From Thiocapsa rosea (GTDB taxonomy: Bacteria > Pseudomonadota > Gammaproteobacteria > Chromatiales > Chromatiaceae), in NCBI RefSeq assembly GCF_003634315.1, contig NZ_RBXL01000001.1, forward strand, positions 3,948,501 to 4,012,500: a stretch of 64,000 nucleotides of DNA, given 5' to 3'. Within the stretch, counting starts at the first letter, position 1, and every line of letters begins with the position of its first letter. The notes below the pieces were generated by a model that did not search any database, was not told the origin of the DNA, and saw only the letters and a program-made list of their open reading frames with translations. A program made the translations under genes and the position numbers. Below are positions 22,775 through 52,059 of the stretch, one piece after another.

Positions 22775-22965
22775 TTAAACCGCGCCCAGCGGTATGCGCT
22801 GTTTTGGGGTGGGATCGGGTCCGGACGACTTGACGATCGCTGGAGCCTGTGCGGTTTAAGATATTAAAAAATATGTTATTTTAAACCGCGTCCCCGCTAA
22901 GGGCCATGGATGTACCAAATGTCTGGCGCACTCGAAAATGAGCATCTCGCTCTGGACGCGGTTTA
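22775..22965. repeat. Composite palindrome element, B unit + 21-bp spacer + A unit
   Basis: B unit 22775-22859 and A unit 22881-22965, each 85 bp and each bounded by TTAAACCGCG and its complement, separated by a 21-bp AT-only-like spacer (22860-22880). The same B-spacer-A order occurs on the minus strand at 50680-50874 and, with variant units, at 25429-25621. Confidence 0.9.
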
Positions 22966-23083
22966 GGTCGGGAGAAAGTGCAGCGTTTCCAGCTTGCGCA
23001 GAGAGGGCGGGGGTATTGTCTTCTGATGAGGGACGACGTTCAGCTACCGGTCAGCTGCCGCGTGTTTCCGGGGCCGAGGATCG

Positions 23084-23184
23084 GCCGACTGAAGTCGGCG
23101 TACCCGGGGGGCCGACTGAAGTCGGCGTACCCGGGGGGCCGACTGAAGTCGGCGTACCCAGGGGGGGCGACTGAAGTCGGCGTA
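23084..23184. repeat. 27-bp tandem repeat of a hairpin motif
   Basis: Almost four copies of a 27-bp unit built on the palindrome GCCGACTGAAGTCGGC followed by GTACCCGGGGG; the last copy has lost a C. A different hairpin (GCCGGTTTCAACCGGC) follows at 23200-23215. The unit recurs at 30447-30543. With the preceding composite element it fills the 610-bp gap between 22769 and 23380. The rest of the gap holds a TTTGCCTCCTTGCGCC stretch near 23339 of the kind common in repetitive DNA, and no gene. Confidence 0.9.
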
Positions 23185-23379
23185 TCGGCCCCTGGGTTCG
23201 CCGGTTTCAACCGGCCCGGGGGTGGCGGACTTCAGTGCGCCGGGAGCAACGATCGGCATCGCGCATTAGGCTGCCCGATTCGGTACGACGCCCGTCGAGG
23301 TTCCGTCCTCACGAACATTGGTCACTCATCGTTCTCTTTGCCTCCTTGCGCCGCTTCGCGTCGGAATCCTTGTTTGGAA

Positions 23380-25410
23380 TCAACCTCCGATCGGACCGCC
23401 GTCCTCCCGTGTGACCACGACGACCGAAGGGCGCGGCGGTATCGCGGGGTCGAAGTCCGGCCAGCGTGTGGCTGGATCCTCGAAGGTCGAGGGGCGCGCG
23501 AAGCCCGGATAGTCGAGCGTGCCGTCGGTGGCCGGGTGCTGCACGGCCAGAAAGAGCGTGCGTCCGTCCGGGGTGAAGCAGGGTCCGCAGAGCTCGGCCC
23601 CGACCGGTACCCGGAAGAACATGCGACCGGTGCCGCGTCCGCTGCCCTCGGTTTCGAGCGCCCACAGCCCGTCGGCGCTGCCGGATGCGCTGTGCCATGC
23701 CTGACCTTGATCGGTCGCGACCCAGAGTCGGCCTTGATGGTCCAGAGCACAGTTGTCCGGACAGGCAAACCAGCCGTTCTCGCCGGTCGCCGGGTTCCAG
23801 AGGGCGGCGGTCGCCGGGTCCCGCGGATTGCCGGCCTTGACGAGAACCTCCCAGCCGAAACGCTGCGCCGTATGATCGCCGGCGGGCGGGGTCAGCTCCA
23901 GAAGATGACCCCAAAGGTTGGCGGCGCGCGGGTTCGCTGAGTCCACTTGCTCGGCCGCGCGTTCCTTGTTGTTGGTGAGCATCACATAGAGGCGTCCGTT
24001 GTGCGGGTTCGGCTCCACGTCCTCGGGTCGGTCCATCGGGGTCGCCCCGAGCAGGTCCGCGGCACGACGGGTCTCGATCAGGACATCGGCTTGGGAGTGG
24101 AAGCCGTTCTCCGGGGTCAGACCGGGTTGGCCGAAGATGAGCGGGAGCCAGGCGAGCGTGCCGTCCGCCTCGAAGCGTGCGACCGAGAGCGTGCCCGCGT
24201 CCAACAGATTGCGGTTCGCCGCGCGATGGCTTGGGTCGACCTTGCCGTCGGTCACGAAACGATACAGATACTCGAAGCGCTGGTCGTCGCCCGAGTAGAG
24301 CACCAGACGGCCGTCGGCGTTGACGATGGACTCGGCGCCCTCGTGCTTGAAACGCCCGAGCGCGGTGCGCTTGATCGGCATGGATGCCGGGTCGAGCGGG
24401 TCGACCTCGACGATCCAGCCGAAGCGATTCGCCTCGTTCGGCTCTGCATTGACGTCGAAACGCCTGTGGAATCGGCCCCAGACGAAGTGGCCGGCAGGCA
24501 CACCGTAGCGGGCGTAGTTGCGTTTCTCCGGATGCTCTGCGACGCCGTCCGCGACGGTTGCGTCCGGATGCCGATTTAGATCGCCTGAGAAATAGCCGTG
24601 GAAATTCTCCTCGGCCATCAAGTAGGTGCCCCAAGGGGTGATGCCCCCGGCACAGTTGTTGAGCGTGCCGATCACCCGCGTGCCGCTCGGATCCGCGGAG
24701 GTCTTCATGCGGTCATGCCCGGCGGCCGGTCCCGAGAGTGCGATCTCGGTGTCGAGCGCGGTGATCCGGCGGGCGTAACGGCTGTCGGCGACGATGGACC
24801 AGCGCCCCGCGTCCTTTCGGATCTCGAGGATGGATCCGCCGTTGCAGGCCATCTCGATCTCGACGTGCTCGCGGGTCGGCGCGCCCGAGGCAGGGAACAT
24901 CACCTCGGCGTTGGTGTACTCGTGATTGATGCACAGCAGGCCGTGCTCCGAACTCTTCGAACCGAGCGGCAAGGGCACATAGCCGACATAGTCGTTGTTG
25001 TAGCCGAACTGCCGGGTCTGGGCTTCAACGCTTTGGCGATCCGGGTCGAAGGCGGGTGCGCCGGGCAGGACGGGGTCGCCCCAACGGATCAGGATGTCGG
25101 AGCGATAGCCGGGTGCGACATGATGGGTCTCGTCGACACCATGGGTGATCTCCTGGAAATCGAAGCGGGTCTTTGTGGTCTCGCGCTCGCTTTCGGGCAC
25201 CGTGACCGTGTCGGCAAGGAGCGCCAAGGGACCGGCCGCGAGACCGCCGAGCGTGCTCGCGGCGAGCGCTCCGCGCAGCAGGTCGCGCCGGCTGAAGCGG
25301 GCCTGGATGATGTCGCCGAGCGTGGCCGCGGCGCTTGGATTAAGGGGGCGGTCGTCCGACGCCTCATGGGCCTCGGCTGAACATGAATAGCGCTGATCGA
25401 TGCTCGACAT
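23380..25410 (-). CDS. PhoX-family phosphatase (DUF839), Tat-exported
   Basis: A 676-residue protein. Near residue 37 a twin-arginine motif (FSRRDLLRG) precedes a hydrophobic stretch ending in Ala-rich sequence, a Tat signal for folded export to the periplasm. The remainder is the PhoX/DUF839 beta-propeller, with family stretches such as GLLCINHEYTN, NNCAGGITPWGTYLMAEENFHG and PEDVEPNP. PhoX enzymes hydrolyse phosphate monoesters using Ca and Fe cofactors (family knowledge), releasing phosphate. No Pho box was seen upstream, where a composite repeat begins seven bases before the start codon and may separate the gene from its promoter. No operon partner. Confidence 0.9.
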   Translation of the reverse strand: MSSIDQRYSCSAEAHEASDDRPLNPSAAATLGDIIQARFSRRDLLRGALAASTLGGLAAGPLALLADTVTVPESERETTKTRFDFQEITHGVDETHHVAPGYRSDILIRWGDPVLPGAPAFDPDRQSVEAQTRQFGYNNDYVGYVPLPLGSKSSEHGLLCINHEYTNAEVMFPASGAPTREHVEIEMACNGGSILEIRKDAGRWSIVADSRYARRITALDTEIALSGPAAGHDRMKTSADPSGTRVIGTLNNCAGGITPWGTYLMAEENFHGYFSGDLNRHPDATVADGVAEHPEKRNYARYGVPAGHFVWGRFHRRFDVNAEPNEANRFGWIVEVDPLDPASMPIKRTALGRFKHEGAESIVNADGRLVLYSGDDQRFEYLYRFVTDGKVDPSHRAANRNLLDAGTLSVARFEADGTLAWLPLIFGQPGLTPENGFHSQADVLIETRRAADLLGATPMDRPEDVEPNPHNGRLYVMLTNNKERAAEQVDSANPRAANLWGHLLELTPPAGDHTAQRFGWEVLVKAGNPRDPATAALWNPATGENGWFACPDNCALDHQGRLWVATDQGQAWHSASGSADGLWALETEGSGRGTGRMFFRVPVGAELCGPCFTPDGRTLFLAVQHPATDGTLDYPGFARPSTFEDPATRWPDFDPAIPPRPSVVVVTREDGGPIGG

Positions 25411-25417
25411 AGGATTC

Positions 25418-25621
25418 TAAACCGCGCCTAAACCGCGCCCAGTGCGGTATGCGTATTGTGTTGGATTGGCTTGGCCGCGCCGGCTCCGACAACCGCCGGA
25501 GCCGGCGCTGCTTAACATATTGAAAATATTAATTTTTAAAACGCCTCTCACCGAGGTCGAGAACATCTCCGAAGCCAAACGCAAAGTGCAAATGACGCAT
25601 TTCACTCCGGGCGCGGTTTAA
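25418..25621. repeat. Composite palindrome element with duplicated left tip
   Basis: An extra TAAACCGCGCC tip (25418-25428), then a B-type unit (25429-25514, right end decayed to GCTGCTTAA), a 21-bp AT-rich spacer (25515-25535), and a C-type unit (25536-25621) whose interior is the reverse complement of the single unit at 26874. The rest of the gap to 25900 shows nothing recognisable. Confidence 0.87.
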
Positions 25622-25900
25622 CGCTCTCGTTGTCGTCGGGTCTGTGCCCGCCCGAACCCGGTCCTTTGCGCGGGGTTGGCGCGGGAGGGCGGAACCCTGA
25701 TTCGAGACGAAATGTCTCGCGTACGGGCTCGAGGGTGCCCGAGATGTCGCGGTCGGGCTGTCGGACGGCGCTCGACCCCCACGCCCCGTCCGGACATGCA
25801 GGATACGCCCCCCGCATGACAATCCTATGTCGTGCTCGACCTGTAGCTTTGCGATACGCTTCCGGACCCTGCAGATGCGATTCGATGGAGGACGCAGCGG

Positions 25901-26815
25901 ATGACGACGAAACGGCAGGAACGCGAAACTATTTCCTTGGCACTGGGCAGCGGAGGAGCCCGCGGACTCGCCCATATCGGCATCATCGAGTCCCTGACCG
26001 CGCGGGGCTATCGTATCTCCTCCATCAGCGGTGCCTCCATGGGCGCCTTGGTCGGCGGCATCTATGCCGCGGGCGAGCTCGACGCCTACAAGCGTTGGGT
26101 CTGCGCGCTGAACCTGGGCGATGTCCTGAGGTTCGTCGATTTCGCCTTCAGCGGGGCCGGGCTACTCAAGGGCGATCGCATCATCGAGACCTTGCGCTCG
26201 ATGGTCGGCGATCATGTGATCGAAGATCTGCCGATCAGCTATACCGCCATCGCAACGGACATCGACCGACAACGCGAGGTTTGGATCTCGACGGGTCCCC
26301 TCTTCGACGCCATCCGTGCCTCGATGGCCGTGCCGGGCGTCTTCACGCCGCACCGCTATCGTGGATTGACGCTGGTCGACGGCGGCCTGCTCAATCCGGT
26401 GCCCATCGCCCCGACCTTTCGGGACTTCACGGACTTGACCGTGGCGGTCAACCTCAATGCCGAGACGAGGTCGGCGAAGGGCGTCGAACGGATGCCCGAT
26501 TCGGCCGCAGCGGCCAAGACGCACGAGGAGACGCCGGTGGATCTCGGCTATCAGGAACGGATCCGGCAATTCTTCGACGCGATCGGCGAGACCCTGGCAG
26601 GGCGCGCCGAGGAGCAGCTCGACGTGTTCGATCTCACGCTGCGATCCTTCGAGACCATGCAGAACGCGATTGCGGCGGTCAAGCTCGCCGCCTATCGCCC
26701 GGACGTGGTGATCGACGTTCCGCGCAATGCGTGCGCCGCGCATGAGTTTCACCGGGCACGCGAGCTGATCGAGCTCGGGCACCGGCTGGCGGAGGAGGCG
26801 ATGGCGGGGCGCTGA
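25901..26815 (+). CDS. Patatin-like phospholipase, RssA type
   Basis: A 304-residue cytoplasmic or membrane-associated serine esterase. The oxyanion-hole loop GSGGARGLAHIG (about 15-26) and the nucleophile motif GASMG (Ser about 48) are present, and the catalytic Asp sits in VDGGLLNPVP near residue 165. Together these give the Ser-Asp dyad of patatins. Length and layout match the RssA/YchK group. Expected activity is acyl-ester hydrolysis on lipids; the substrate is unknown. GGAGG lies eight bases before the ATG. It stands alone between repeat elements. Confidence 0.9.
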   Translation: MTTKRQERETISLALGSGGARGLAHIGIIESLTARGYRISSISGASMGALVGGIYAAGELDAYKRWVCALNLGDVLRFVDFAFSGAGLLKGDRIIETLRSMVGDHVIEDLPISYTAIATDIDRQREVWISTGPLFDAIRASMAVPGVFTPHRYRGLTLVDGGLLNPVPIAPTFRDFTDLTVAVNLNAETRSAKGVERMPDSAAAAKTHEETPVDLGYQERIRQFFDAIGETLAGRAEEQLDVFDLTLRSFETMQNAIAAVKLAAYRPDVVIDVPRNACAAHEFHRARELIELGHRLAEEAMAGR

Positions 26816-26873
26816 CCCTGCGCGGGCGGGGCTCCGACATCGCGCCTGCGGTACGGGACCCGACGAACGGGAC

Positions 26874-26958
26874 TAAACCGCGTCCAGAGCGACATGCGTC
26901 ATTTTCATGTTGCGTTTGGCTTCGGAGATGTGCTCGATCTCGGTGAGGCGCGGTTTAA
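26874..26958. repeat. TTAAACCGCG-family unit (C type)
   Basis: A single 85-bp palindromic unit. Reverse-complemented, its interior matches the second unit of the element at 25418-25621. Confidence 0.88.
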
Positions 26959-27027
26959 CTCTCGGGGATTGGGGAGGTGGTGCGTCCCTGCACCGGCGGA
27001 GAACGGTTGGCGGGTCGGTATGAGGGC

Positions 27028-27417
27028 TCAGTGCGCGGTTGCCCGGATGGCCTCTTCGCGTGTGTAGAACCGACCGTCGAGGATGAATCCGGACACGATA
27101 CCCTGGCGGGTCGCAGTCACATGACCTTCATGATCGCGTTCGAGGACCCAGGACTCGGGTAGGCCGTCGAGCAGATGCACCGGCGCCGGCGTTCCGTTCG
27201 CAAAGCGCGACAGCACCGCCTCGCCGGTCGCGCCGTTGCGATAACCGGGTCGAAATCCGAACGATCCGTTGTTCCGGCTGATGCCTCTGGTGCGCGCGTA
27301 AAGGACGTTTTCGTTTCGAAGTGACGCTTGCGTCAAGGCACCGCGGAGCCGGCGTGCGCGCTCCTGATCCTGTGTCGTCGCGGTCTGCGTCTGGGTTTGG
27401 AGGTGTAGATCGTTCAT
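27028..27417 (-). CDS. Conserved-looking hypothetical protein
   Basis: A 129-residue soluble protein with a good ribosome-binding site (GAGGAG upstream of the ATG at 27417). The first 30 residues are Thr/Gln-rich. The rest has an ordered look, with SFGFRPGYRNGATGEAVLSR and PAPVHLLDGLPESWV stretches and a final LDGRFYTREEA. I do not recognise the family. No neighbour is linked to it: a repeat and the divergent patatin gene lie on one side, and a repeat and the Lrp gene on the other. Confidence 0.6.
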   Translation of the reverse strand: MNDLHLQTQTQTATTQDQERARRLRGALTQASLRNENVLYARTRGISRNNGSFGFRPGYRNGATGEAVLSRFANGTPAPVHLLDGLPESWVLERDHEGHVTATRQGIVSGFILDGRFYTREEAIRATAH

Positions 27418-27643
27418 GGGTTTCTCCTCGCCTCTATGATGAATGAGGCTTTCGCTGGAGAGTCAAGCATTCGGCGTGCCGGAGGCGGGATTCATGCGAA
27501 TGCGGCTGGCTTGGGCGGTCGGTGTTCGGTCGCTATGGAGTTTCAGCCAACCATCCAAACCGAGCGCTGCTCGGCGAAAGTCGCGAGCGCCGATCCGAAT
27601 CTTGGTGCGCACGCGCCGGCGCATCACGCCCTTGAGGATGAGT

Positions 27644-27728
27644 TTAAACCGCGTCCCCGCTAAGGGCCGCGGATGCACCGAACGTCGAACTCACGCGAAA
27701 GTGAGTATCTCGCTCTGGACGCGGTTTA
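27644..27728. repeat. TTAAACCGCG-family unit (A type)
   Basis: A single 85-bp unit nearly identical to the A unit at 22881-22965 (shared TCCCCGCTAAGGGCC and ATCTCGCTCTGGACGCGG blocks), same orientation. It occupies the end of the 321-bp gap from 27418; the remainder shows no gene. Confidence 0.9.
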
Positions 27729-27738
27729 GTCGTCGGAT

Positions 27739-28203
27739 TCAATCCAACGGGAGACGTGCGCGCTCCACCACGCGCCGCAGGACGAAGCTCGAGTGCACGC
27801 CGGTGACCCCTTCGATGCGGGTGATCTTGTTGAGCAGCAGATCCTGATAGGCATCCATATCGCGCACGACGACCTTGAGCTGGTAGTCGGCGTCGCGTCC
27901 CGTGATCAAGAGACATTCCTGCACCTCCGGGATGGCCGCGACGGCGGCGTCGAAGCGCTCGAAGCGCTCCGGGGTGTGCTTGTCCATGGAGATGCTGAGG
28001 ATGGCCATGAGGTTGAGCCCGAGCGTCTTGGCATCGAGCAGCGCTGCGTAGCCGCGGATGATGCCGGACTCCTCGAGTGCCCGGACACGTCGCAGACAGG
28101 GCGAGGGCGACAGCCCGATGCGGTCGGCCAGCTCTTGATTGCTGATACGCCCGTCGCGTTGCAGCTCTTCGAGGATTCGGCGGTCGTAGCGGTCCAGCGT
28201 CAT
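27739..28203 (-). CDS. Lrp/AsnC-family transcription regulator
   Basis: A 154-residue regulator with an N-terminal winged helix-turn-helix (about 1-60, DRYDRRILEELQRDGRIS and ELADRIGLSPSPCLRRV) and a C-terminal RAM/ACT-like ligand-binding domain (65-145) with the ITGRDADYQLKVVVRD core. Family members form dimers and octamers and respond to amino acids. It is divergent from leuA across 493 bp, so control of leuA or of itself by leucine is a reasonable guess. No Lrp site was identified. It is shorter than the global Lrp of enterics (164), so a local regulator is more likely. Confidence 0.92.
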   Translation of the reverse strand: MTLDRYDRRILEELQRDGRISNQELADRIGLSPSPCLRRVRALEESGIIRGYAALLDAKTLGLNLMAILSISMDKHTPERFERFDAAVAAIPEVQECLLITGRDADYQLKVVVRDMDAYQDLLLNKITRIEGVTGVHSSFVLRRVVERARLPLD

Positions 28204-28527
28204 CGGGGTTGCTCCGTCCGGTGGGTCGTTCGGGGTGGTGGTTTCGAGATCTGCCGAAGAATTCGAAAAGAGTGGTAGATCCTTGCGCAGAAGATCCGCT
28301 AGAAGGGCGGTTTTGCAATCATCTGCGTGCCTTTTGATCCTATTCTATCCCCGTCGGCCAACCAGCCGCGACCCGGGCAAGGGCTCACGAGGCACCTGCC
28401 CATGAGGCTCCAAGTCCTTACCGGGACGGGAGCGGCCAAGTCCCCTACCGGGGCACGGCAAAGCGGTTCCACCCCGCCGTTTGCTCGGCGCGGGCGTGAA
28501 TGACCCGCCTGCTGGGAATAGCTGGTA

Positions 28528-28672
28528 GCTATCAGCTATCAGCTATCAGCTATCAGCTATCAGCGATTGGATGTGCTTTGACAGCATTGAGTCGAACGCA
28601 TCGACTCGGCTGACGGCTGGCGGCTGGCGGCTGGCGGCTGGCGGCTGACGGCTGACGGCTGACGGCTGCAGC
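28528..28672. repeat. Facing heptanucleotide arrays upstream of leuA
   Basis: Array 1 (28528-28563) repeats AGCTATC, reading AGCTGAT on the other strand. Array 2 (28608-28672) repeats GGCTGAC/GGCTGGC. The two face each other around about 44 bp, so they could fold into a large imperfect hairpin just before leuA. The part of the gap from 28204 to 28510 has GC-rich sequence and no gene. Confidence 0.85.
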
Positions 28673-28696
28673 GCACTCATGACTCCGGAGAACAGC

Positions 28697-30364
28697 ATGA
28701 CCTGTTTTGACCCCCGAAAATATCGTCGCGGTCCGGTAGTGGATCTGCCGAACCGCCGCTGGCCGAGCCGTGTCGTCGAGCAGGCTCCGATCTGGGCGAG
28801 TGTGGATCTGCGCGACGGCAACCAGGCGCTGTTGGAGCCGATGGGTGTCGCTCAGAAGCGTCGTCTTTGGGTGCTTCTGGTCAAGCTCGGCTTCAAGGAG
28901 ATCGAGATCGGTTTCCCGGCTGCGAGCCAGCCGGACTTCGACTTCGTGCGCTGGTTGATCGAGGAAGACAAGATCCCCGAGGACGTGACCGTCCAGGTCT
29001 TGGTCCAGGCGCGCGAGGATCTGATCCGGCGTACCTTCGATGCCTTGGAGGGTGCTCCGCGCGCGATCGTCCATCTCTACAACTCCACCTCGCCGGTTCA
29101 GCGTGATTGGGTCTTCGGCCAGGAGCGCGCGGGTGTGAAGGCGATCGCCCGTCAGGGTGCCGAGTGGGTCTTGCGCGAGGCGCAACGCCGGCCCGCGACA
29201 CGCTGGACCTTCCAGTACTCGCCCGAGAGCTTCACGGCCACCGAGCCGGATTATGCGGTCGAGGTCTGCGAGGCGGTGCTGGAGGTCTGGCAGCCGACCC
29301 CGCAACGGCCGTGCATCGTCAATCTGCCCGCGACGGTCGAGGTCGCGAGCCCGAATGTCTTCGCCGATCAGGTCGAGTATTTCGCGACACACATCTCGCG
29401 GCGCGAGGCAATCATCTTGTCGGTGCACACCCACAACGATCGCGGCGGTGCTGCGGCAGCGGCGGAGCTCGCCCTGTTGGCGGGCGCGGATCGGGTCGAG
29501 GGGACGCTGCTCGGCAACGGCGAGCGCACCGGCAACCTGGACATCGTGACCCTGGCGATGAACCTCTACAGCCAGGGCATCGATCCGGGTCTGGACCTGA
29601 GCGACCCGGACGAGATCGTCCGGGTGGTGGAGGAATGCACCGGCACCGCGCTGCATCCGCGACACCCCTGGGTGGGCGAGCTGGTCTATACCGCCTTCTC
29701 GGGCAGTCACCAGGATGCCATCCGCAAGTGTCTGATGCGACAGAGCCCGGACGAGCCCTGGCAGGTCGCCTATCTGCCGATCGACCCGCGTGATCTGGGT
29801 CGCAGCTATCAGGCGGTGATCCGGGTCAACAGCCAGTCCGGGAAGGGTGGCGTCGCCTTCGTCATGGAGCGCGACTTCGGGCTGAACCTGCCGCGCTGGA
29901 TGCAGGTCGAGCTGGCGCGATTGGTCCAGTCGCAGAGCGAGCGGCGCGGCGGGGAGATGGATTCCGAGAGTATTCATCGCATCTTCATGGACCATTTTGT
30001 CGTCGATCGAACCCCGGTCCGGCTGCTCGGCTATCGGCTGGATCGCAACGGGCACGACGTGATCGAGGCCCGCATCGCGGGACCGGACGGGGAGCATCGG
30101 CTGCGCGGAGAGGGGGAGGGCGCCATGGCCGCTTTCGTGGATGCCTGGTCGGGCTGGAGCGGTCAGCCGGTTCGCATCCTGGATTATCAGGAGCATGCGA
30201 TCGGCGAGGGCACGGATGCCGAGGCCATCGCCTATGTCCAGCTGGAGCTTGGATCGCAGCGGATCGCCGGCGCGGCGATCGATCGCGACACGGTGGCCGC
30301 CTCTCTGGGTGCCGTCCTGTCCGCGCTGAATCGCGGCGAGGTCAGACAGGCTCGGGCGGCTTAA
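28697..30364 (+). CDS. leuA: 2-isopropylmalate synthase
   Basis: First committed enzyme of leucine synthesis: acetyl-CoA plus 2-oxoisovalerate. The product is 555 residues from ATG 28697, chosen because CCGGAG lies seven bases upstream; ATG 28679 is in frame without such a site. The HMGL-type TIM barrel (about 25-300) has the metal and substrate loop [13 protein letters not shown], the HTHNDRGG histidine motif and a GNGERTGN stretch. The C-terminal third is the LeuA allosteric dimer domain that binds leucine. The N-terminus ([18 protein letters not shown]) and length fit the IPMS type of about 555 residues. Its TAA stop lies inside a repeat tip. Other leu genes are absent from the window. Confidence 0.95.
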
Positions 30365-30391
30365 ACCGCGTCCAGAGCGATATGCGCTCGC
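30361..30391. repeat. Half unit of the TTAAACCGCG family
   Basis: The left arm TTAAACCGCGTCCAGAGCGA is present without a right arm; the TAA at 30362-30364 is the stop codon of leuA. Confidence 0.75.
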
Positions 30392-30446
30392 CTTTCGTCC
30401 ATGCCTCTTGGGTTCCCCAACCGGACGCAAGACTTCGGTTCCACAC

Positions 30447-30543
30447 CCGGGTACGCCGACTTCAGTCGGCCCCCCGAGCACGCCCGCACGGCGGACTGAA
30501 GTCCGCCTCCCCGGGGGCCGACTGAAGTCGGCGTACCCGGGCG
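30447..30543. repeat. Hairpin repeats related to the 27-bp tandem
   Basis: Three palindromes: GCCGACTTCAGTCGGC (near 30455), GGCGGACTGAAGTCCGCC (near 30490) and GCCGACTGAAGTCGGC (near 30517), with flanking GTACCCGGG as in the array at 23084. Confidence 0.85.
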
Positions 30544-30598
30544 GTCGCGGTCGGTGACCTGAACACTGCTGATGTGGCCGAAAACGATGATCGAGGCT

Positions 30599-30690
30599 GA
30601 CAACGACAACGACAACGACAACGAGTATAGCGTTCGACCACTTGTCCTGGTTGCGGCGCTTACGGTCGATCATTTCCCGGAAATCACCTT
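30599..30690. repeat. GACAAC-hexamer dispersed repeat, copy 1
   Basis: Four GACAAC units then GAGTA, followed by about 65 bp that match 52083-52150 (shared TTCGAC, CTTGGTT/CCTGGTT and TTTCCCGGAAA blocks). It abuts the end of the kinase gene at 30689. Confidence 0.8.
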
Positions 30691-31753: not shown

Positions 31754-33087
31754 GCTGTCGACCTCCTCCGTCGGGGTGCGTGCGGTTCGAATGATGGTCT
31801 TCCTGTTTGGCCTCGGAGGAGATGTTCCACGCGCAGAAGCGTCTGCTCGATCCGCTCCGGCCAGTTGCACTCGCGCCTGCGGAAGGCCTCCGGCGCAAGG
31901 CGCAGCAGACCGGCCGCGACGTAAAGATCCGTGCGGACCGGTCGCGCGCATCGGCCTTCACGGCAATAGCCTTCGATCAGGTCGGCGGCGATCTCCTCGG
32001 CACGCGCCGACGCGAGGCGTCCGGCCAGGCAGTCGTCTTCGAGTCGGGCGATGAAGCTTCCGAGATCGGCCGCGGGGTCGCCCGATCCGGCTTGGTCGTA
32101 GTCGATGATCGCGACCCTGTCCGCGTCCAACAGGATCTGATCGGCGGAGAAATCGCCGTGGATACATGGGTGCTGACCCGGTGCCGCAAGGAGCGCCGAT
32201 GCCATGCGCGAGGCGAGCCGTTGCGCCAGATGGGCCAGTCGGGGTTGGAGCCCGGCCACGGCATCGGCGGCCGCCAAGGCCGCCATGGCTTCCTGCTCGC
32301 GCATGACCGGTGCAAGGGACCCCGGCGCTTGGCGATGAAACGCGGCGAGTGCGGCACCGACCGGCCGCATCGGACTCGGTTCGTGAGCCGGCCCATGCAG
32401 CCATGCATTTAGCGGATCTCCGGGTATCCACCGGCTCACGATGACGCGCTGCTGCTTGGAGCGACCGATCGCTCGGGAGACCCGCAGCCGCTCCGACGCA
32501 GTGAAATCCCGGATCGCCTTGGCCGAGCGCCAGGCGTTGGGGAAGTCGCGCTCGTCGTAGAGCTTGACGATCGCCCGGGCGCCCCCGTCGACGGACAGTT
32601 TGCCCACGTATCGACGTTCGGGCTTGTAGTGAAGGGTCTCCAGCTCCGCGCGGCGGAGCTCGAGCGCCTCCGGCGCCAGTGCGCTCATCAGCAAGCCGCG
32701 CGCCTCGGCATCGACAAGTGCGGCGAGCGCAGGGAGACGACGGTCGAGGGGAAAGCGCCGGAGGAGACTTCGGCGCTCCTCGATGAGGCAGATCCCCGCA
32801 CCCGTGCCCGCTTTCGCCGCCTTGCCTGCTTGGCGGACTGCATCCCGCGCGTCGGCGAAGGCCTTGGCGTGGAACCGCAGCGGGCCGCGCGGGGTGCGGG
32901 CACGATAGCCGACAAGACAATTGGTGCCGGGTTTGTAGCGCAGATAGCTGGTCTCGAGCGAAGTGATCCCATCATCCGGCCAGGCCATGCACACGGCGTC
33001 GAGGATCGCCTCCCTGTCCAACACGAGCCCGAGTCCCGGCAGCGCGGTGTCGCGCGCCGCGAGTGCGCGATCAGGGTCCGAAAGCAT
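31750..33087 (-). CDS. APH-fold phosphotransferase, longer paralogue
   Basis: A 445-residue protein starting at MLSDPDRALAARD (ATG 33087), which overlaps the ABC exporter gene by 17 bases; an upstream extension to 33273 is antisense-like and rejected. The catalytic loop is HGDFSADQILL (Gln where many APH enzymes have Asn), followed by AIIDYDQAG and DPAADLGSF, typical of the APH family. The N-terminal part contains a YKPGTNCLVGYRAR segment, and the other kinase of the operon has the equivalent HKPGMRCLIEYRL, so both share the same N-lobe design. The substrate is unknown; the operon suggests a sugar or glycolipid. Protein kinase-like activity cannot be excluded. Confidence 0.82.
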   Translation of the reverse strand: MLSDPDRALAARDTALPGLGLVLDREAILDAVCMAWPDDGITSLETSYLRYKPGTNCLVGYRARTPRGPLRFHAKAFADARDAVRQAGKAAKAGTGAGICLIEERRSLLRRFPLDRRLPALAALVDAEARGLLMSALAPEALELRRAELETLHYKPERRYVGKLSVDGGARAIVKLYDERDFPNAWRSAKAIRDFTASERLRVSRAIGRSKQQRVIVSRWIPGDPLNAWLHGPAHEPSPMRPVGAALAAFHRQAPGSLAPVMREQEAMAALAAADAVAGLQPRLAHLAQRLASRMASALLAAPGQHPCIHGDFSADQILLDADRVAIIDYDQAGSGDPAADLGSFIARLEDDCLAGRLASARAEEIAADLIEGYCREGRCARPVRTDLYVAAGLLRLAPEAFRRRECNWPERIEQTLLRVEHLLRGQTGRPSFEPHAPRRRRSTA

Positions 33088-36174: not shown

Positions 36175-36177
36175 GGC

Positions 36178-38689: not shown

Positions 38690-39107
38690 TGATTCAGATC
38701 CATGTTCGGCTGTGCAATGCATCGATGCCTCCGAGGTCGGGGCGTGCGTTCGGGAGAATCACCCCATCGGCCCCGCGTGGGGCGGTGATTCGCGGCAGTT
38801 GTCGGCGTGGCCCGTCTCGGTTCCGATCGGTTCCGAACCGGTTCCGGATTGGATACGGCGGTATCGCCGACGAGTCATCGTTTCACATTGGAAAACAGGT
38901 TCGGTCATGCGCAGATGCAGGAGCGGACCTCATCCTCCGGACACGAGACTCTCACGGGGAGGCTGAATGGATGCTGAATGCGGCGGCGAACTTCACACCG
39001 CGATCGGCGATCGGCGATCGGCGAGCGCCACGATGTGCCGAGCCTTCCACTCCCGTGCACGAGGTTGTAGGCTCGCGGCTTTCTCGTTGTAACCCTCAAG
39101 ACACGCG
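38690..39107. other. Divergent intergenic region, 418 bp
   Basis: It must hold promoters for both the glycosyltransferase operon and the SNF2 helicase gene. Short tandem features are a CGGTTCCGA-rich stretch (about 38817-38850) and three GATCGGC heptamers (39002-39022). No convincing promoter boxes or small gene were picked out. Confidence 0.5.
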
Positions 39108-42428: not shown

Positions 42429-42431
42429 GCA

Positions 42432-43436: not shown

Positions 43437-43446
43437 GGGTCCGGAC

Positions 43447-43890
43447 TCAGAAGACGGGGATCTGGGCGAATAGGACGAGGAGGATGATCGCGAGGATCCC
43501 GACAGCCGTCCAGATGCGATTGAGCCAGCGTCGACGGCCTCGCCGCTGTTCGCGCGCGGTTGAGAAGCCCGGATCGGATTCGATCTCGGGCGCGAGATAG
43601 ACCCGTTGATGGGTCAAATCGATCGCATCGACAGCGGCGGCCGCGGTCACCGGATCGGTTCGGTAAAGGCCGGCCTCCGCATCGACCATGCTGCGCCGCA
43701 GTGCCGTTTGTGCGTGCATCCGGGCGACGTGGAGTGCGGGAAAAAAGGCCGCGTAGCGCAGACGAGGCCCTGCCGAATCGGTTCCCACGACATCCGAGGT
43801 TGTCGGGTTCTGCGGTGAACTGAAGACACGCACGAGCCCCGGCCGGTCGTCACGTGTCTCGACGATCAGGTAACCTTCGAGATCACTCAT
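43447..43890 (-). CDS. Tail-anchored hypothetical protein
   Basis: A 147-residue protein with a soluble N-terminal part and a single hydrophobic helix at the very C-terminus (about 125-145), preceded by an Arg-rich patch, so it is likely inserted tail-first into the inner membrane. The N-terminus (EGYLIVETRDDRPGLVRV) has a structured look, but no family is recognised. It is ten bases before the DUF389 gene, implying a shared transcript. Confidence 0.62.
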   Translation of the reverse strand: MSDLEGYLIVETRDDRPGLVRVFSSPQNPTTSDVVGTDSAGPRLRYAAFFPALHVARMHAQTALRRSMVDAEAGLYRTDPVTAAAAVDAIDLTHQRVYLAPEIESDPGFSTAREQRRGRRRWLNRIWTAVGILAIILLVLFAQIPVF

Positions 43891-43899
43891 CGCGTCGTC

Positions 43900-43959
43900 A
43901 CGCGCCCGACGGGCGCGTCCCTACGCCGAGGGTCGGACTGGATTCGGGCGTACGCCCGA
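43900..43959. other. Two GC-rich palindromes between small genes
   Basis: ACGCGCCCGACGGGCGCGT (43900-43918) and the perfect 16-bp palindrome TCGGGCGTACGCCCGA (43944-43959) lie between the 64-residue gene and the tail-anchored gene on the minus strand. No T-run follows; they may be weak terminators or processing hairpins. Confidence 0.5.
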
Positions 43960-43969
43960 TCGATGCGTT

Positions 43970-44164
43970 TCAGGCCGCGCGGCTCTTGCGCTCGATCTCC
44001 CAGTTGCACCGGTCGATAAGAACCTTCAGCGTTCGCGTGACCGCGATGTCGCTGCGCAGCTCGAACCGTTTGCCGTGCTCCCAACAGTCGTCGGCTGCAT
44101 CCGCGAGTAGCGGAAGCCCTTGACGGCAGAGTTCCCAAAAGGCGAGTGAACGTTGTGTGCTCAT
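43970..44164 (-). CDS. Small hypothetical protein
   Basis: A 64-residue soluble protein starting at ATG 44164 with AGGGG upstream. It begins MSTQRSLAFWELCRQG and is mostly helical with a basic end. An in-frame extension to 44248 is less likely because the site is weaker. No family recognised. It lies upstream of the tail-anchored gene with two palindromes in between. Confidence 0.5.
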   Translation of the reverse strand: MSTQRSLAFWELCRQGLPLLADAADDCWEHGKRFELRSDIAVTRTLKVLIDRCNWEIERKSRAA

Positions 44165-44542
44165 GACGCATATCCCCTGACGATGGATCCGAAGACGGAC
44201 GATGGCGACTTGCTTGGCTTGCTGTGAATGACGCACAAGTCTTGCCATCTCGTCGAGACCCTTGGCTACTCAGGATCTGTAGCCGCTTCGCAACAAACAA
44301 ACGCATGCGATTTGTCGTTGACCCCACATGGAGTCTAGCGTATCGGAGCGCTTTTGTCGGCATCGCAACACTCATGATTCTTTTCCGCAACGCATTGATG
44401 TGTCTCTATGATGATTAAAAAATGCGTGCAGCGTCCGGCTTTGCAAGACAAAAGGTGCCGAACGGGAACGAATTCGGTTTTAATCTCGGCGACCGGCAGG
44501 TGGGAGTCGAGCTGCAAGAAATCGACGATTCCCTGATCGGGA
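44165..44542. other. Intergenic region, 378 bp
   Basis: Lower in GC than the surroundings, especially 44340-44430. A 64-codon frame at 44224-44418 has no ribosome-binding site or family. No terminator for oxyR was found. Confidence 0.4.
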
Positions 44543-45463
44543 TCAGCTCAGACGTCTTACCGTGTTCGGGAGGTGCTGCCGGATCACCTCGGCGAAAGCC
44601 TGCAGCGCAGCACGTCTCGGGAAGCTGCGCCGGTAGACCAACGAGATGCGTCGGAACGCATCCGGAAGGTTGCTCAGCGGGCGGGCGATGATGCCGCTGT
44701 CGGTCATCCAGGCCCCGCGGATCGCCAGCGCCGGGACCAGCGTACAGCCGAAGCCCGCGCCGACGAGCTGCAGCAGCGTCTCCAGGCTCGCGGCGCGCAA
44801 GTCCGCCATCTCGCCCTTCGTCGGCCGCTCGGCGAGACGGCAGACCTCCATGACCTGGTGGGTGAGGCAATGACCGTCGGCCAGCAGAAGAAGATCGACC
44901 TCTTCCAGGTCCTTCGCCGTGATCTCGTCCTTCTCGTAGAGAGGATCGTTGCGCGGATGGGCGAGCCAAAAGGGTTCGTCGAACAGCGGCATGGTGTCTA
45001 GGTCGGTATCCTCGACCGGCGTGGCGAGCAGCGCAGCATCGATCTCATGCCGCACGAGGCGACCGAGGAGCAGGTCGGTAATCTCCTCCGACAGGATCAA
45101 CTTCAGATTCGGGTAGTTGCGTTTCAACGGCACCAGGATCTGAGGGATCAAATAGGGGCTCAGTGTCGGAATGGCCCCGATGCGCAGCGGGCCGGCGAGC
45201 GGGTCTTGATGGGCGCGCGCGACTTGCTCGATGGCCTGGGCCTGCTCCAAGGCGAGCCGCGCATGCCCGAGAATCGCCTCGCCGACCGGTGTAATCTCCA
45301 CCGAGCGGTTCGTGCGCTCGAAGATGACCACGTCGAGCTCCTCCTCGAGCTTCTTGATCTGCCCGCTCAAGGTCGGCTGACTCACGAAGCAGCGCTCCGC
45401 GGCACGACCGAAGTGGCGTGTCTCGGCGACGGCCAGGATGTATTTGAGGTCTCGGAGGTTCAC
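44543..45463 (-). CDS. oxyR: Hydrogen peroxide sensor-regulator OxyR
   Basis: A 306-residue LysR-family activator. The winged helix-turn-helix covers residues 1-60 (ETRHFGRAAERCFVSQPTLS). The regulatory domain has the redox pair at C199 and C208 in DGHCLTHQVMEVC, the same positions as in E. coli OxyR. This supports a true peroxide sensor that forms a disulfide and activates catalase/peroxidase-type genes. A peroxiredoxin gene is at 5731, but no OxyR box was proved there. No catalase gene lies next to it. Heptad repeats fill the gap upstream. Confidence 0.95.
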   Translation of the reverse strand: MNLRDLKYILAVAETRHFGRAAERCFVSQPTLSGQIKKLEEELDVVIFERTNRSVEITPVGEAILGHARLALEQAQAIEQVARAHQDPLAGPLRIGAIPTLSPYLIPQILVPLKRNYPNLKLILSEEITDLLLGRLVRHEIDAALLATPVEDTDLDTMPLFDEPFWLAHPRNDPLYEKDEITAKDLEEVDLLLLADGHCLTHQVMEVCRLAERPTKGEMADLRAASLETLLQLVGAGFGCTLVPALAIRGAWMTDSGIIARPLSNLPDAFRRISLVYRRSFPRRAALQAFAEVIRQHLPNTVRRLS

Positions 45464-45496
45464 GTAGCGATGATACAGCGGCGGGGCGTTGGTCTC

Positions 45497-45755
45497 CAGC
45501 TTCCAGCCTCCAGCTTCCAGCCTCCAGCTTCCAGCCGTCAGCTCTCAGCTCTCAGCTCTCAGCTCTCAGCTTCCGGTTGTCACTGTTCGGGTCAGGGTAC
45601 CTTGGTTTCGCTGTTTAGTTGCTGTTTCCGGCTTGATTGGACGTCTGGAATGCCGGCATCCTCTGGCTGACGGCTGACGGCTGACGGCTGACGGCTGACG
45701 GCTGACGGCTGACGGCAGGAGGCAGGAGGCATGAGGCAGGAAGCTGAACGCCGAG
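45497..45755. repeat. Facing heptanucleotide arrays between oxyR and clpB
   Basis: Array 3 (about 45497-45572) has CCAGCTT/CCAGCCT then TCAGCTC heptamers. Array 4 (about 45664-45755) has seven GGCTGAC units and then GGCAGGA/GGCATGA heptamers. They face each other around about 90 bp, as the pair upstream of leuA does around about 44 bp. The RpoH promoter lies just after. Confidence 0.88.
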
Positions 45756-45759
45756 CCCG

Positions 45760-45788
45760 CTTGATTGCCCCCGGCCGATTCCCCACCT
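45760..45788 (+). promoter_or_regulatory. Probable RpoH (sigma-32) promoter of clpB
   Basis: CTTGATT (45760-45766), 14 bases, then CCCCACCT (45781-45788) closely matches the heat-shock consensus CTTGAAA-N11-14-CCCCATNT. It ends 37 bases before the GTG start of clpB, the expected place for a heat-shock promoter. Confidence 0.75.
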
Positions 45789-45825
45789 CCGCAATGACCT
45801 TATAAAAACTCAGGAGTCATGCACC

Positions 45826-48420
<2,595 letters not shown>

Positions 48421-48446
48421 CGTTCGGGCACTGACCGAACGAAGAA

Positions 48447-48475
48447 GGCGCGAAGGGGTGGATATCCTTCGCGCC
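48447..48475. terminator. Hairpin downstream of clpB
   Basis: Perfect 10-bp stem GGCGCGAAGG / CCTTCGCGCC with a 9-base loop, 27 bases after the clpB stop. No U-tract follows, so it may act as a weak terminator or as a stabilising 3' hairpin. Confidence 0.5.
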
Positions 48476-48533
48476 CTTGAAGTGACTTCCTGCGGGATGG
48501 CCGTCCGAGATGTTCTGTCGCCGAGTGGGGATC

Positions 48534-48794
48534 TTACTCGACTGCCGAGGCCATGATCGGTGCGCCGAGCTGCACGGTGCCCACAGGTGCGATGCGTGAC
48601 GCGACGACCGCGCTCGGATCCGGGGTCGGCGTGGCGTGAGGGTTGGCGATGACCAAGAACGATGCGGTCAGGACGACGGCGCCGCCGACCGTGCGCGTGG
48701 CGACCTTCCCCGCATCCATCGATGCGAGTCGATCGCGGATACGAATCGCCGTATCGATGACGTTCGAAATATCGGTTGCTGTCGGAATACGCAT
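48534..48794 (-). CDS. Small hypothetical protein with one hydrophobic segment
   Basis: An 86-residue protein with a strong ribosome-binding site (GGAGGAG upstream of the ATG at 48794). It starts MRIPTATDISNVIDTAIRIR and has a hydrophobic stretch at about 37-50 (GAVVLTASFLVIA), so a single-span or membrane-associated protein is possible. No family recognised. It stands alone, convergent with clpB. Confidence 0.55.
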   Translation of the reverse strand: MRIPTATDISNVIDTAIRIRDRLASMDAGKVATRTVGGAVVLTASFLVIANPHATPTPDPSAVVASRIAPVGTVQLGAPIMASAVE

Positions 48795-48969
48795 CTTGAG
48801 TCTCCTCCAAGGTTTTTGTTGTCCTTATAGACTGTCGTTGATTCAGATGCGAATCAAAACGCCTAATCCTTCCGATTCGGTCGGGATTTTGTTCGAATTT
48901 CTCGACGTGCCCGACCAGGGCATCAGGTGCGATCGGCCCGTCCGGCCCGATTCCGGCTAGAATCCGCCC

Positions 48970-49057
48970 TTAAACCGCGCCGGCTCCAGCGGTCGTCACA
49001 TCTGCCGGGGCCGGCCCCATCCAAAAAGATCACGTACCGCACCACAGGGCGCGGTTT
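48970..49057. repeat. TTAAACCGCG-family unit (B type, reverse)
   Basis: An 88-bp unit, nearly identical inside to the B unit at 50788-50874 (CGGCTCCAGCGGTCGTCAC block, ATCCAAAAA block). The right tip is truncated to GCGGTTT. It lies 25 bases before the start of the next gene. Confidence 0.85.
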
Positions 49058-49081
49058 CATTCGAATCGGGAGACCCTTGCA

Positions 49082-50056
49082 ATGAGCCAAGCGCTCAAAA
49101 CGGTCGTCGCACGTCAACGCATCCTCTTGCAGGGTCGACTGGCGGCATCGCTCGCGCGGCTGGTCGAGCCGTGTCGCGCGGCTTGGCCGGATCGCACCGC
49201 TTTGGAGCAGATCCTGCTCGCGGCATTGCCGACGCTCGCGTCCTGCAAGTATCTCTACGTGCTCGACCATGAGGCCCGCCAATTGACGGCGAACGTCTCC
49301 CCGCACGGCCTGTTGCCGGAGCATTGGGGTCGAGATCGGCGCGAGCGACCCTACTTGGCCGAGGCGCTCGCCGGCGAGCGCTTCTCGCTGTCGCCCGTCT
49401 ATATCAGCCGCAACGCCCGCCGTCCTTCGCTCACCGCGATCCAGCGGATCGAGGACGAGCAGGGCGCACCGCTGGGCTATCTCGGTGCCGACTTCGATCT
49501 GCGCGAGCTTCCGCTCACCCGCGAGCTCTACGAGCAGCCGGAGCAATGGCTCCAGCTCAAAGGCGATCCGGCGATCCGCGGCGGTCTGTTCGATCAACAG
49601 CGTGTCGAGAGTCTGATGGACGGGCATATCGACGAGATCCTCGATCTCCTCGTCGAGCTGATCGCCGCGCACGGGGTCTTCCACGGCAAGCTGCATTTTT
49701 CCAGCTCGCGCGCCACCCTCTGGCTTGTCGACGACCCCTTTCGGTTCCGAATCCTCGACTACGAGGATCTCGCCGATCCGGGCACCTGTCTCGCCTATCC
49801 ACAGCGCCCCTATCCGGTCGATGCGTCCATTCCGTTGGATCGGGTCGCCGAGGTCTTCCGCACCTTCCGGGCGCTGCGCTTCATGGACGAGAACATCTAT
49901 CTACGCTCGGGGTCGCTCAACATCTACAACGGTATCGTCGGGCTGAACTTCTCGTGCGATGGCTCGCACTACATGCCCTGGGACGACTTCCTGCACAAGA
50001 GCCTCGATTTTTGGATCGGCACGGGCGAATCCTGCGCGTTGGAGGGCGGCAGCTGA
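49082..50056 (+). CDS. PDC/Cache-type sensor-domain protein
   Basis: A 324-residue protein with GGGAG before its ATG. The first 150 residues resemble the PDC/dCache ligand-binding domains of chemoreceptors (CKYLYVLDHEARQLTANVS, then RPYLAEAL, then YISRNARRPSLTAIQRI and GYLGADFDLREL). There is no membrane helix and no methyl-accepting or kinase domain. The C-terminal half has TLWLVDDPFRFRILDYEDL and NIYNGIVGLNFSCDGSHYMPWDDF, not recognised. A stand-alone cytoplasmic sensor module is thus likely; its partner is unknown. B-type repeats lie on both sides. Confidence 0.7.
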   Translation: MSQALKTVVARQRILLQGRLAASLARLVEPCRAAWPDRTALEQILLAALPTLASCKYLYVLDHEARQLTANVSPHGLLPEHWGRDRRERPYLAEALAGERFSLSPVYISRNARRPSLTAIQRIEDEQGAPLGYLGADFDLRELPLTRELYEQPEQWLQLKGDPAIRGGLFDQQRVESLMDGHIDEILDLLVELIAAHGVFHGKLHFSSSRATLWLVDDPFRFRILDYEDLADPGTCLAYPQRPYPVDASIPLDRVAEVFRTFRALRFMDENIYLRSGSLNIYNGIVGLNFSCDGSHYMPWDDFLHKSLDFWIGTGESCALEGGS

Positions 50057-50063
50057 GGTCTGG

Positions 50064-50149
50064 AACACCGAGCCGACTCCAGCGGCCGTCAAGTCTGCCG
50101 AGTCCGATCCCCTCCAAAAACATCGCATACCGCGCTGGGCGCGGTTTAA
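50064..50149. repeat. TTAAACCGCG-family unit (B type, left tip decayed)
   Basis: The interior matches the B units at 48970 and 50788; the left tip has decayed (GGAACACCGAGCCG) and the right tip GCGCGGTTTAA is intact. The complement of TTA at 50146-50148 is the stop codon of the gene ending there. Confidence 0.8.
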
Positions 50150-50424
50150 GCCGATTGTTCGTTCTCCAAAGCCTTCTTGGTGATCTCCTGGTACAGCGCG
50201 ACCGCGCGCGTGTAGATCCCCTGCACGTCGGGGCGCTGGTCCACGTAGCGCTTCATGCCCTCCGCATCCTCGAAAACCGCGTGAAGATGAGCGAGGTCGG
50301 CGTCGTCGAGTCTCTCGCCGCGGTCGACCTTCGCCTTGATGTCGAGCGCGCGCGGCAGCCGAAACTTCTCGAAGCGTTCGAGAATGGCAACGATCACACC
50401 GTCTTGGTGCGAGGCATCGGTCAT
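50146..50424 (-). CDS. Small helical hypothetical protein
   Basis: A 92-residue soluble, mostly helical and highly charged protein (ATG 50424, GGGAG upstream). Key stretches: [19 protein letters not shown] and [18 protein letters not shown]. It looks like a conserved small protein, but I do not recognise the family. The stop codon lies within the repeat, so the last residues may differ from those in relatives. Confidence 0.6.
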
Positions 50425-50679
50425 GGTGTTCTCCCGTGGGATTGGGTTGATTCGGTGTCTGCGCCGATCGGCGCGTGACGGGCCGAGAGCAAGAGAATAC
50501 GCTTGCGCCTGCGAGATCGGAACTCCTGAAAAGCAAGGGTTTGGAAGCGCCTAAAAAAGGGAAGACAACTCGACGAGTCGATCCCTTTGGCACGGTTGTC
50601 GTTCTCGATTACGACAACGACAACGATTCGGTGCTTGAAGTATTGCCGACACATGGCCTGATAGGACTTGATAAGGCGG
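50425..50679. other. Intergenic region with a GACAAC-type hairpin
   Basis: Includes GTTGTCGT (50595-50602) and ACGACAAC (50611-50618) as facing arms around eight bases, followed by another ACAACG. It is related to the hexamer repeats at 30599 and 52060. No gene seen in the 469-bp gap to 50893. Confidence 0.55.
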
Positions 50680-50874
50680 TTAAACCGCGTCCAGATCGAG
50701 ATGCTAAATTTTCGAGTGAGCTCGACGTTCGTTGCATCCGCGGCCCTGAGCGGGGACGCGGTTTAAAATCATATCTTTTTAAATCTCTTAAACCGCGCCG
50801 GCTCCAGCGGTCGTCACGTCTGCCGGGGACGATCCCATCCAAAAACATCGCATACCGCACCGGGCGCGGTTTAA
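50680..50874. repeat. Composite palindrome element on the reverse strand (A + spacer + B)
   Basis: A unit 50680-50766, 21-bp AT-rich spacer 50767-50787, B unit 50788-50874. Reverse-complemented it has the same B-spacer-A order as 22775-22965, and both units match closely. Confidence 0.9.
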
Positions 50875-51898: not shown

Positions 51899-52059
51899 GG
51901 CGAACCCCGGAAGTGCGAGCCGCAGGGTCGGCACGCCGTCCAATCCGGTCGCCCGTGGAAGAGGACGACTGCAAGTCGTCTATCCCGGGGGCACGCCGCT
52001 TCGCGCCGTTGCTTCCGGCCGATCGGATGTGCAAGGAAGGATCGGTTCCTCCGGAATCC

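What the first reader, a model, noticed from the sequence alone, without database searches (positions are those of the whole stretch)
22775..50874. BIME-like family of TTAAACCGCG palindromes with a conserved two-unit + 21-bp spacer architecture
Seen: eleven near-complete units of about 85-89 bp (14857, 22775, 22881, 25429, 25536, 26874, 27644, 48970, 50064, 50680, 50788) and two half units (6665, 30361), each ending in TTAAACCGCG and its complement. They fall into at least three interior types (A, B, C). At 22775-22965, 25429-25621 and 50680-50874 (reverse strand) two units are joined in the same polarity by a 21-bp AT-rich spacer whose bases are themselves partly conserved. Known: BIMEs are mosaics of REP units, some binding IHF or gyrase, and are moved by TnpA-REP proteins. 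Inference: a mobile or structured mosaic element; the spacer may bind a bending protein such as IHF.
Basis: partly seen in the sequence, partly recalled or inferred. Interest (0 to 1): 0.78.

Follow-up and report, generated by a model that had tools for sequence, protein, structure and literature searches.

The report
Twin transposon remnants at stop codons
The repeats are a large family of tiny non-coding jumping-gene remnants, often built as a matched pair around an AT-rich loop, that sit very often exactly on the stop codons of genes, which matters because it shows how hundreds of insertions can settle in a genome without breaking it.

Summary
The ~86-bp units occur genome-wide: 1402 end-motif hits in 6.11 Mb against 5 for the reversed motif. 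Their termini (YTAAACCGCGYC) are shared with an IS630-family insertion sequence, multi-copy in another genus of the family and present once, decayed, in the same genus; unit type B matches its 5' end over 52 bp. Best explanation: IS630-type MITEs, mobilised in trans by a transposase not found in this genome. A frequent form is a ~193-bp twin: unit A, 20-21 bp AT-rich spacer, inverted unit B or C (67 of 77 pairs), folding as one hairpin with the spacer as loop. The spacer is less conserved than the units; IHF is not supported. Retention by selection at gene ends is plausible, unproven. Against a simple TA target, only 1 of 7 clean absent sites in relatives shows TA.

The parts
6665..6690 (+). 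solitary head (half unit), CTAAACCGCGTCCGGAGCGAGATGCG
   Evidence: one search lists no matching right end near it
14856..14946 (+). single unit, type A2; its TAA (14857-14859) is the in-frame stop of the ORF 11362-14859
22775..22859 (+). unit A1 of twin 1
22860..22880 (+). 21-bp AT-rich spacer (hairpin loop) of twin 1
22881..22966 (-). unit C of twin 1
25417..25427 (+). extra partial terminal repeat CTAAACCGCGC abutting twin 2
25428..25515 (+). unit A2 of twin 2 (right end decayed)
25516..25535 (+). 20-bp AT-rich spacer of twin 2
25536..25621 (-). unit B of twin 2; the whole twin is absent at the orthologous place in G001
26873..26958 (+). single unit B, absent in G001
27644..27729 (-). single unit C; no unit beside the right flank in G001 and G004
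30361..30386 (+). solitary head; its TAA (30362-30364) is the in-frame stop of the ORF 28739-30364
48970..49059 (-). single unit, A1-like by eye (unassigned by the clustering), absent in G001 and G004
50064..50149 (-). single unit, A1-like, with decayed left end; its intact end supplies the stop of the small minus-strand ORF 50146-50424 (a weak gene call)
50680..50766 (+). unit C of twin 3 (reverse orientation)
50767..50787 (-). 21-bp AT-rich spacer of twin 3
50788..50874 (-). unit A1 of twin 3; the twin is absent in G001

Best explanation
The units are non-autonomous miniature elements (MITEs) of an IS630-family (Tc1/mariner-like) insertion sequence, spread hundreds-fold in most species of one genus. 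Each ~86-bp unit keeps the 11-12 bp terminal inverted repeat that the transposase would recognise (sharing of termini shown; recognition inferred). Many copies are twins: two diverged units in inverted orientation around a 20-21 bp AT-rich spacer, forming one long hairpin. At window sites 25428 and 50680 the whole twin is absent in a relative, so it probably spreads as a ~193-bp piece (inferred). A matching transposase was not found in this genome, so spread here is probably over. About half of the elements lie with their terminal T(A/G)A exactly as the stop codon of a neighbouring gene: insertion at a YTA|A or YTA|G stop would leave the protein intact because the element's own first A restores TAA (inferred). 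Harmlessness alone does not explain the excess over other intergenic sites, so there is either a target preference or selective retention at gene 3' ends; which of the two is not settled.
For: Copy number and distribution: 1402 hits versus 5 control; 304-1402 in 8 of 11 same-genus genomes counting this one, 1-6 in the other three, 26 in one other genus, 0-2 in the remaining 26 of 38 genomes. IS630 link: G014 has 26 hits; at the 21 junctions examined the element ends are YTAAACCGCGTC (5' type, 9) and YTAAACCGCGYC (3' type, 12). The frame at the 5' end is IS630-like (NF033545 E 1.4e-18 on a partial frame, 67 bits, below that model's cut-off of 100). Both the 5' frame and the sequence at the 3' end match the G007 transposase (65% over residues 2-94; 69% over residues 173-293). 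G007 has one 1279-bp copy (L211:890-2168; one TGA in the matched stretch) whose 5' end aligns to type B over 52 bp with one gap; the interior part scores 31 against a shuffle maximum of 17. Twins: 67 of 77 pairs; 56 of the 67 spacers are 20-21 bp; MFE z mean -6.5 in the 23 of 67 twins folded, with most pairs bridging the two units in 18 of 23. Stop codons: 103 gene ends on 97 of 208 elements, against 5 gene ends elsewhere inside an element; YTAR stop occupancy 39/107 against 20/289 other sites in convergent gaps and 58/178 against 53/811 in tandem gaps (Fisher p 7e-12 and 1e-18). Second sample: 15 of 37 elements in 400 kb of G001 and 4 of 5 in 160 kb of G004, one of the four with poorly matching ends. 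The G007 IS630 copy itself starts on the stop codon of an ORF.
Against: No autonomous element with these ends was found in this genome: its matches to the G007 protein are about 26% identical, and among the 23 own IS630-family loci an exact T[AG]AACCGCG[CT]C lies within 1.5 kb at one place only (two overlapping loci), one-mismatch ends at a few. A TA duplication is not shown: at seven cleanly absent sites the relative has CTGA, CCGA, TTCA, TTCA, CTAA, TGCA and TCGA, only one with TA. Of 32 comparisons of unit types with the ends of the two IS630 elements, B and C to the G007 5' end exceed every shuffle; A2 only equals the shuffle maximum and A1 stays within it. IS630 copies in G014 show no excess at stop phase (4 of 21 junctions with at least 60 open codons, as in each other frame), so the preference is not shown to belong to the transposase. 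Fixed length and near-perfect stems in copies with unrelated interiors are not what plain decay of old MITEs would give.
Confidence: 0.82

Rival explanations
1. The element has been domesticated: a hairpin (or twin hairpin, working in both directions) fixed on the stop codon serves as a gene-end element, for example for transcription termination, mRNA 3' protection, or insulation of convergent genes, and is kept by selection.
For: Stop-codon placement about 5-fold above other YTAR sites, also in convergent gaps. Diverse class: 51 units outside the main types; in them 25 compensatory pair changes against 4 single ones. Perfect-stem units outside types A-C and not overlapping a known unit are confined to 85-89 bp in a search open from about 28 to 233 bp (38 of 39; the exception is 46 bp). 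Thirteen pairs of units outside A-C have 17-29 bp spacers, mean AT 77%. One twin supplies both stop codons of two convergent genes in three species. In G001 stop-site elements are found again in 9 of 13 decidable cases, other elements in 7 of 20, a trend only.
Against: That trend is not significant (Fisher p 0.08, or 0.11 with end-like traces counted as not present), and several of its roughly 100-bp flank matches may be to partner units. 21 of the 25 compensatory changes are at one position (TA to TG/CA) and may come from few ancestors, and the unit finder's limit on end mismatches disfavours extra single changes. Types A-C carry 67 single against 3 compensatory changes, as in decay. Single stem mismatches occur among orthologues. 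At one locus a separate terminator-like hairpin lies downstream in two relatives. No expression data.
Confidence: 0.22
2. BIME/REP elements moved by a TnpA-REP (RAYT) protein, with an IHF site in the spacer.
For: Two inverted units around an AT-rich spacer, high copy number, mostly extragenic; nine Y1 transposase matches in the genome.
Against: Ends shared with IS630; Y1 matches in all 11 genus genomes whether or not they hold the units; of the eight Y1 loci fetched (of nine matches), six have no end motif within about 1.5 kb at up to one mismatch; IHF signal near control level; units far longer than the REPs listed in PMC2817692.
Confidence: 0.05
3. The paired stems are kept by mutation and not by selection: template switching in the quasi-palindrome corrects one arm to match the other (mechanism recalled, not from a call).
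For: Would give compensatory changes without any function and needs only the hairpin.
Against: Types A-C still hold many uncorrected single changes; does not explain stop-codon placement or fixed length.
Confidence: 0.12

Closest known systems
RUP elements of Streptococcus pneumoniae (107 bp, IS630-Spn1 ends)
   Same: Short non-coding repeat whose terminal inverted repeats match an IS630-family element; TA-type target (passages of PMC2229807 and PMC3049150)
   Different: Here two units often form a fixed twin with an AT-rich spacer, copy number is several times higher (my extrapolation of about 870 units, against 108 RUPs in PMC2229807), and about half of the elements lie on stop codons
BOX elements of Streptococcus pneumoniae
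   Same: Repeats that encode the stop codon of the gene they abut: 36 cases at extreme 3' ends without strong evidence of truncation (passage of PMC3049150)
   Different: Modular boxA/B/C structure, other proposed mobilising element; no comparison of stop-codon sites with other sites was seen in the passages read
BIME-1 / REP doublets
   Same: Two inverted palindromic units around a spacer, dispersed, extragenic
   Different: The REPs tabulated in the passages of PMC2817692 are about 20-40 nt, many headed GTAG, and tied to RAYT genes; these are 86-bp units with IS630 ends
Correia elements of Neisseria
   Same: Short repeats delimited by terminal inverted repeats, thought to be non-autonomous mobile elements
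   Different: 26-bp inverted repeats and internal sequences up to 156 bp (passage of PMC3049150); no twin form known to me (recalled)

Membership tests
IS630-type MITE | Terminal inverted repeats shared with an IS630-family element | tested here: met
IS630-type MITE | Short and multi-copy | tested here: met
   84-91 bp, 301 units in 2.104 Mb searched with the broader finder (at least one is a false positive); 1402 end motifs genome-wide
IS630-type MITE | Presence/absence at orthologous sites | tested here: met
   seven cleanly absent sites in G001 or G004, 17 of 37 decidable elements have nothing end-like at the G001 place
IS630-type MITE | TA target-site duplication | tested here: inconclusive
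   Most units have TA at both ends, but only 1 of 7 clean absent sites has TA
IS630-type MITE | Autonomous partner in the same genome | tested here: not met
   a decayed match (40% identity, two stops) is seen in G001
IS630-type MITE | Mobilisation by the transposase | not testable with these tools
   needs an assay
REP/BIME | About 20-40 nt imperfect palindrome, often with GTAG-type head | tested here: not met
   REP forms from passages of PMC2817692
REP/BIME | Cognate RAYT gene whose presence follows the repeats | tested here: not met
   (tested with the general Y1 family, not with RAYT subgroups)
REP/BIME | IHF or gyrase binding | tested here: inconclusive
   consensus scan for IHF near control level; gyrase not tested

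The most novel reading that the evidence does not exclude
A transposon-derived twin hairpin has become a genus-wide gene-end module: it supplies the stop codon and a structured 3' end for many genes, sometimes for both of two convergent genes, and is held by selection for its stems, unit length and AT-rich loop while its interior sequence turns over.
Probability: 0.2. Interest if true: 0.78.

Novelty: new variant of a known kind. Interest (0 to 1): 0.52.

Why it matters
It replaces a BIME label by a traceable origin (IS630), gives a clean case of how a repeat family can reach many hundreds of copies while often sitting on stop codons, and offers a natural test of whether mobile hairpins are recruited as gene ends. 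Occupancy of one third of suitable stop codons is high enough for expression data to decide the question.

Tried and rejected
Integron attC reading: considered from memory on seeing fixed length and paired stems; the ends do not fit the recalled core sites and the twin arrangement does not fit cassettes. RAYT reading: not supported. IHF site in the spacer: not supported. 'IS1380 element with the same ends' in G014: first read so from L190, then explained as an IS1380-type gene inserted in the 3' part of the IS630 element. Simple gene truncation as the cause of stop-codon overlap: rejected because only 5 gene ends fall elsewhere inside elements against 103 at the terminal stop. Promoter avoidance as the cause: rejected because the excess persists between convergent genes. 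One search gave 158 flank matches, but most for types A-C look paralogous (the flank is the partner unit) and part of its output was cut. One supposed empty stop site (L132, case c98) was dropped because the relative has an end-like sequence there. The 'unit' at 31970 of the joined 80-kb stretch looks like coding sequence, a false positive of the broad finder; the decoy run also gave 1 in the four sequences tried. The genome-contig scan returned 80 relatives at 55-63% identity and did not name the organism. Paper searches for the terminal sequence and for Thiocapsa with MITEs found nothing relevant; the genus guess was mine, from memory.
Full report
Observation. The terminal 10-mer occurs 24 times with up to one mismatch against 1.7 expected. 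Genome-wide, YTAAACCGCGYC occurs 1402 times against 5 for the reversed pattern. I sampled 101 stretches (97 of the main contig, 3 of the second contig, and the window; 2,064,000 of 6,111,855 bases, of which 2,500 read N). They hold 285 units with both ends recognisable. A broader finder, run on these stretches plus 40 kb, gives 301, of which 288 are 85-88 bp long. By my own rough estimate fewer than one strict unit would be expected by chance (not a tool result).

Anatomy. Clustering gives A1 (69), A2 (58), B (60), C (47) and 51 units outside these types. Seventy-seven neighbours lie close together; 67 are A, spacer, inverted B or C: A1-C 26, A2-B 25, A1-B 11, A2-C 5. Folding shows what the twin is: heads pair with heads, tails with tails, and the spacer is the loop. 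In every third twin (23 of 67) the mean z-score is -6.5 (range -16.8 to -1.6, 30 shuffles each), and most pairs bridge the two units in 18 of 23.

The diverse class. Searching for a perfect 12-bp inverted repeat built on AACCGCG (one mismatch allowed) over total lengths of about 28 to 233 bp found 147: 103 in types A-C, 28 in the diverse class (these 131 in the 85-89 bp bin except one A2 in the 90-94 bin) and 16 new. Of the 16, ten have other stems or new places and measure 85-88 bp, one is a 46-bp unit, three are known units with a doubled end, and two are the outer ends of whole twins. A search for any 12-bp perfect inverted repeat shows the same excess at 86-89 bp. Thirteen pairs of units outside A-C (two of them already among the 77) have spacers of 17-29 bp with AT 57-83%, mean 77%. 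Stem changes in the 51 are paired in 25 cases and single in 4; in types A-C they are paired in 3 and single in 67. Most paired changes are at one position, and the finder's limit favours them, so I count this as suggestive only. A pattern for one stem variant (TGAACCGCGTC and complement) occurs 31-52 times in each of eight genomes of the genus and in none of the other 30 searched; several loci look orthologous between G004 and G005.

Origin. G014, of another genus in the family, has 26 end-motif hits, many about 117 bp from contig starts, as expected for a collapsed multi-copy element (interpretation inferred). I examined 21 junctions; two hits belong to one 46-47 bp mini-unit, one leads to another inner sequence, and two were not fetched. 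Nine junctions carry the end that leads into an IS630-type reading frame (the frame itself was seen in the longer stretches). Twelve carry the other end, whose sequence codes for the C-terminus of the same kind of transposase, as matches to the G007 protein show. In L190 an IS1380-type gene interrupts this. G007, of the same genus but with a single end-motif hit, holds one 1279-bp copy with both ends (L211:890-2168). Its 5' end matches type B over 52 bp, and type C in part (interior scores 31 and 22 against shuffle maxima 17 and 19). A2 reaches 17 against 17, A1 stays within the shuffles, and no tail matched beyond the shuffles (32 comparisons). So the termini are shared by all types, and the longer match is shown for B and C heads only.

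Mobility. Against G001 (about 92% identical in shared genes) and G004, seven sites cleanly lack the element: window 25428 and 50680 (whole twins), 26873, 48970, two in the neighbouring 80 kb, and L132:4849. The four bases there are CTGA, TTCA, CCGA, TTCA, TGCA, CTAA and TCGA. The outer two agree with the filled site in 13 of 14 positions; the inner two are TA only once. I leave this unexplained. Three further sites looked at were not clean enough to read. A scripted count in G001 gives 17 elements absent, 4 with an end-like trace and 16 present among 37 decidable ones; some of the 'present' calls rest on about 100-bp flank matches that may be to partner units.

Stop codons. Genes were called with my own codon-usage script (1600 genes, 80% coding), not taken from an annotation. 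At 103 gene 3' ends the stop codon is the T(A/G)A of the element's end: 95 TAA, 8 TGA; all called genes have 1002 TGA, 323 TAA and 213 TAG. These ends belong to 97 of 208 elements (six with both ends used). Only five gene ends fall elsewhere inside an element. No such peak exists at gene starts. If insertions were spread evenly over intergenic and stop YTAR sites, 12% would be at stops, or 5.6% for all TA sites. By gap type, stop YTAR sites are occupied at 36% (convergent) and 33% (tandem), against 7% for other YTAR sites in the same gaps; divergent gaps, which have no stops, hold 27 elements to 362 free sites, also 7%. G001 and G004 show the same placement (15 of 37 and 4 of 5 elements). Stop-site elements tend to be shared with G001 more often (9 of 13 against 7 of 20), not significantly (p 0.08). 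In the window, units at 14856 and 50064 and the half unit at 30361 lie on stops. IS630 copies of G014 do not show the excess, which favours retention over targeting, though junction stretches were short and few; the single G007 copy does sit on a stop.

Literature. RUP, a 107-bp repeat with IS630-Spn1 ends and TA targets, is the nearest relative in kind; BOX elements encode the stop codon of the preceding gene in 36 cases (passages of PMC2229807 and PMC3049150 found by term; not read whole). REP/RAYT features were taken from passages of PMC2817692. Searches for the end sequence, for IS630 MITEs with stop codons, for Thiocapsa with MITEs, and for purple sulfur bacteria with MITEs gave listings in which I saw no report of this family; absence from print is claimed no wider than these searches of an open-licence library.

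Verdict. A real, large, IS630-derived MITE family with an unusual twin form and an unusual excess on stop codons: a new variant of a known kind.

Noticed in passing
23083-23184 and 30431-30541: A 27-bp tandem array (GGCCGACTGAAGTCGGCGTACCCGGGG) with inverted relatives about 7 kb away; another palindromic repeat family of this genome, not studied.
   Followed up: no
30599-30624, 52059-52085; also in G001 at the sites opposite 14856, 22775 and 50680: (GACAAC)n / (GTTGTC)n tracts occur in intergenic gaps here and in the relative, often near element sites; the two window copies share 91 bp at 84%.
   Followed up: no
28607-28668, 45494-45574, 45665-45716: Heptamer arrays CGGCTGA and TCCAGCT in two orientations.
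   Followed up: no
L211:890-2168 (G007): The IS630 copy begins exactly on the TAA stop of the ORF L211:3-893, like the small units in the related genomes.
   Followed up: partly
joined 80-kb stretch (G000:C1:4020001-4100000), 27331-27662, with G001 and G004: Two units about 30 bp apart in G004 lie about 160 bp apart here and about 365 bp apart in G001, with unrelated sequence between, so the space between twin units itself seems to receive insertions.
   Followed up: partly
seven absent sites: Relatives lacking the element show Y-NN-A with NN rarely TA, at odds with a simple TA duplication.
   Followed up: partly
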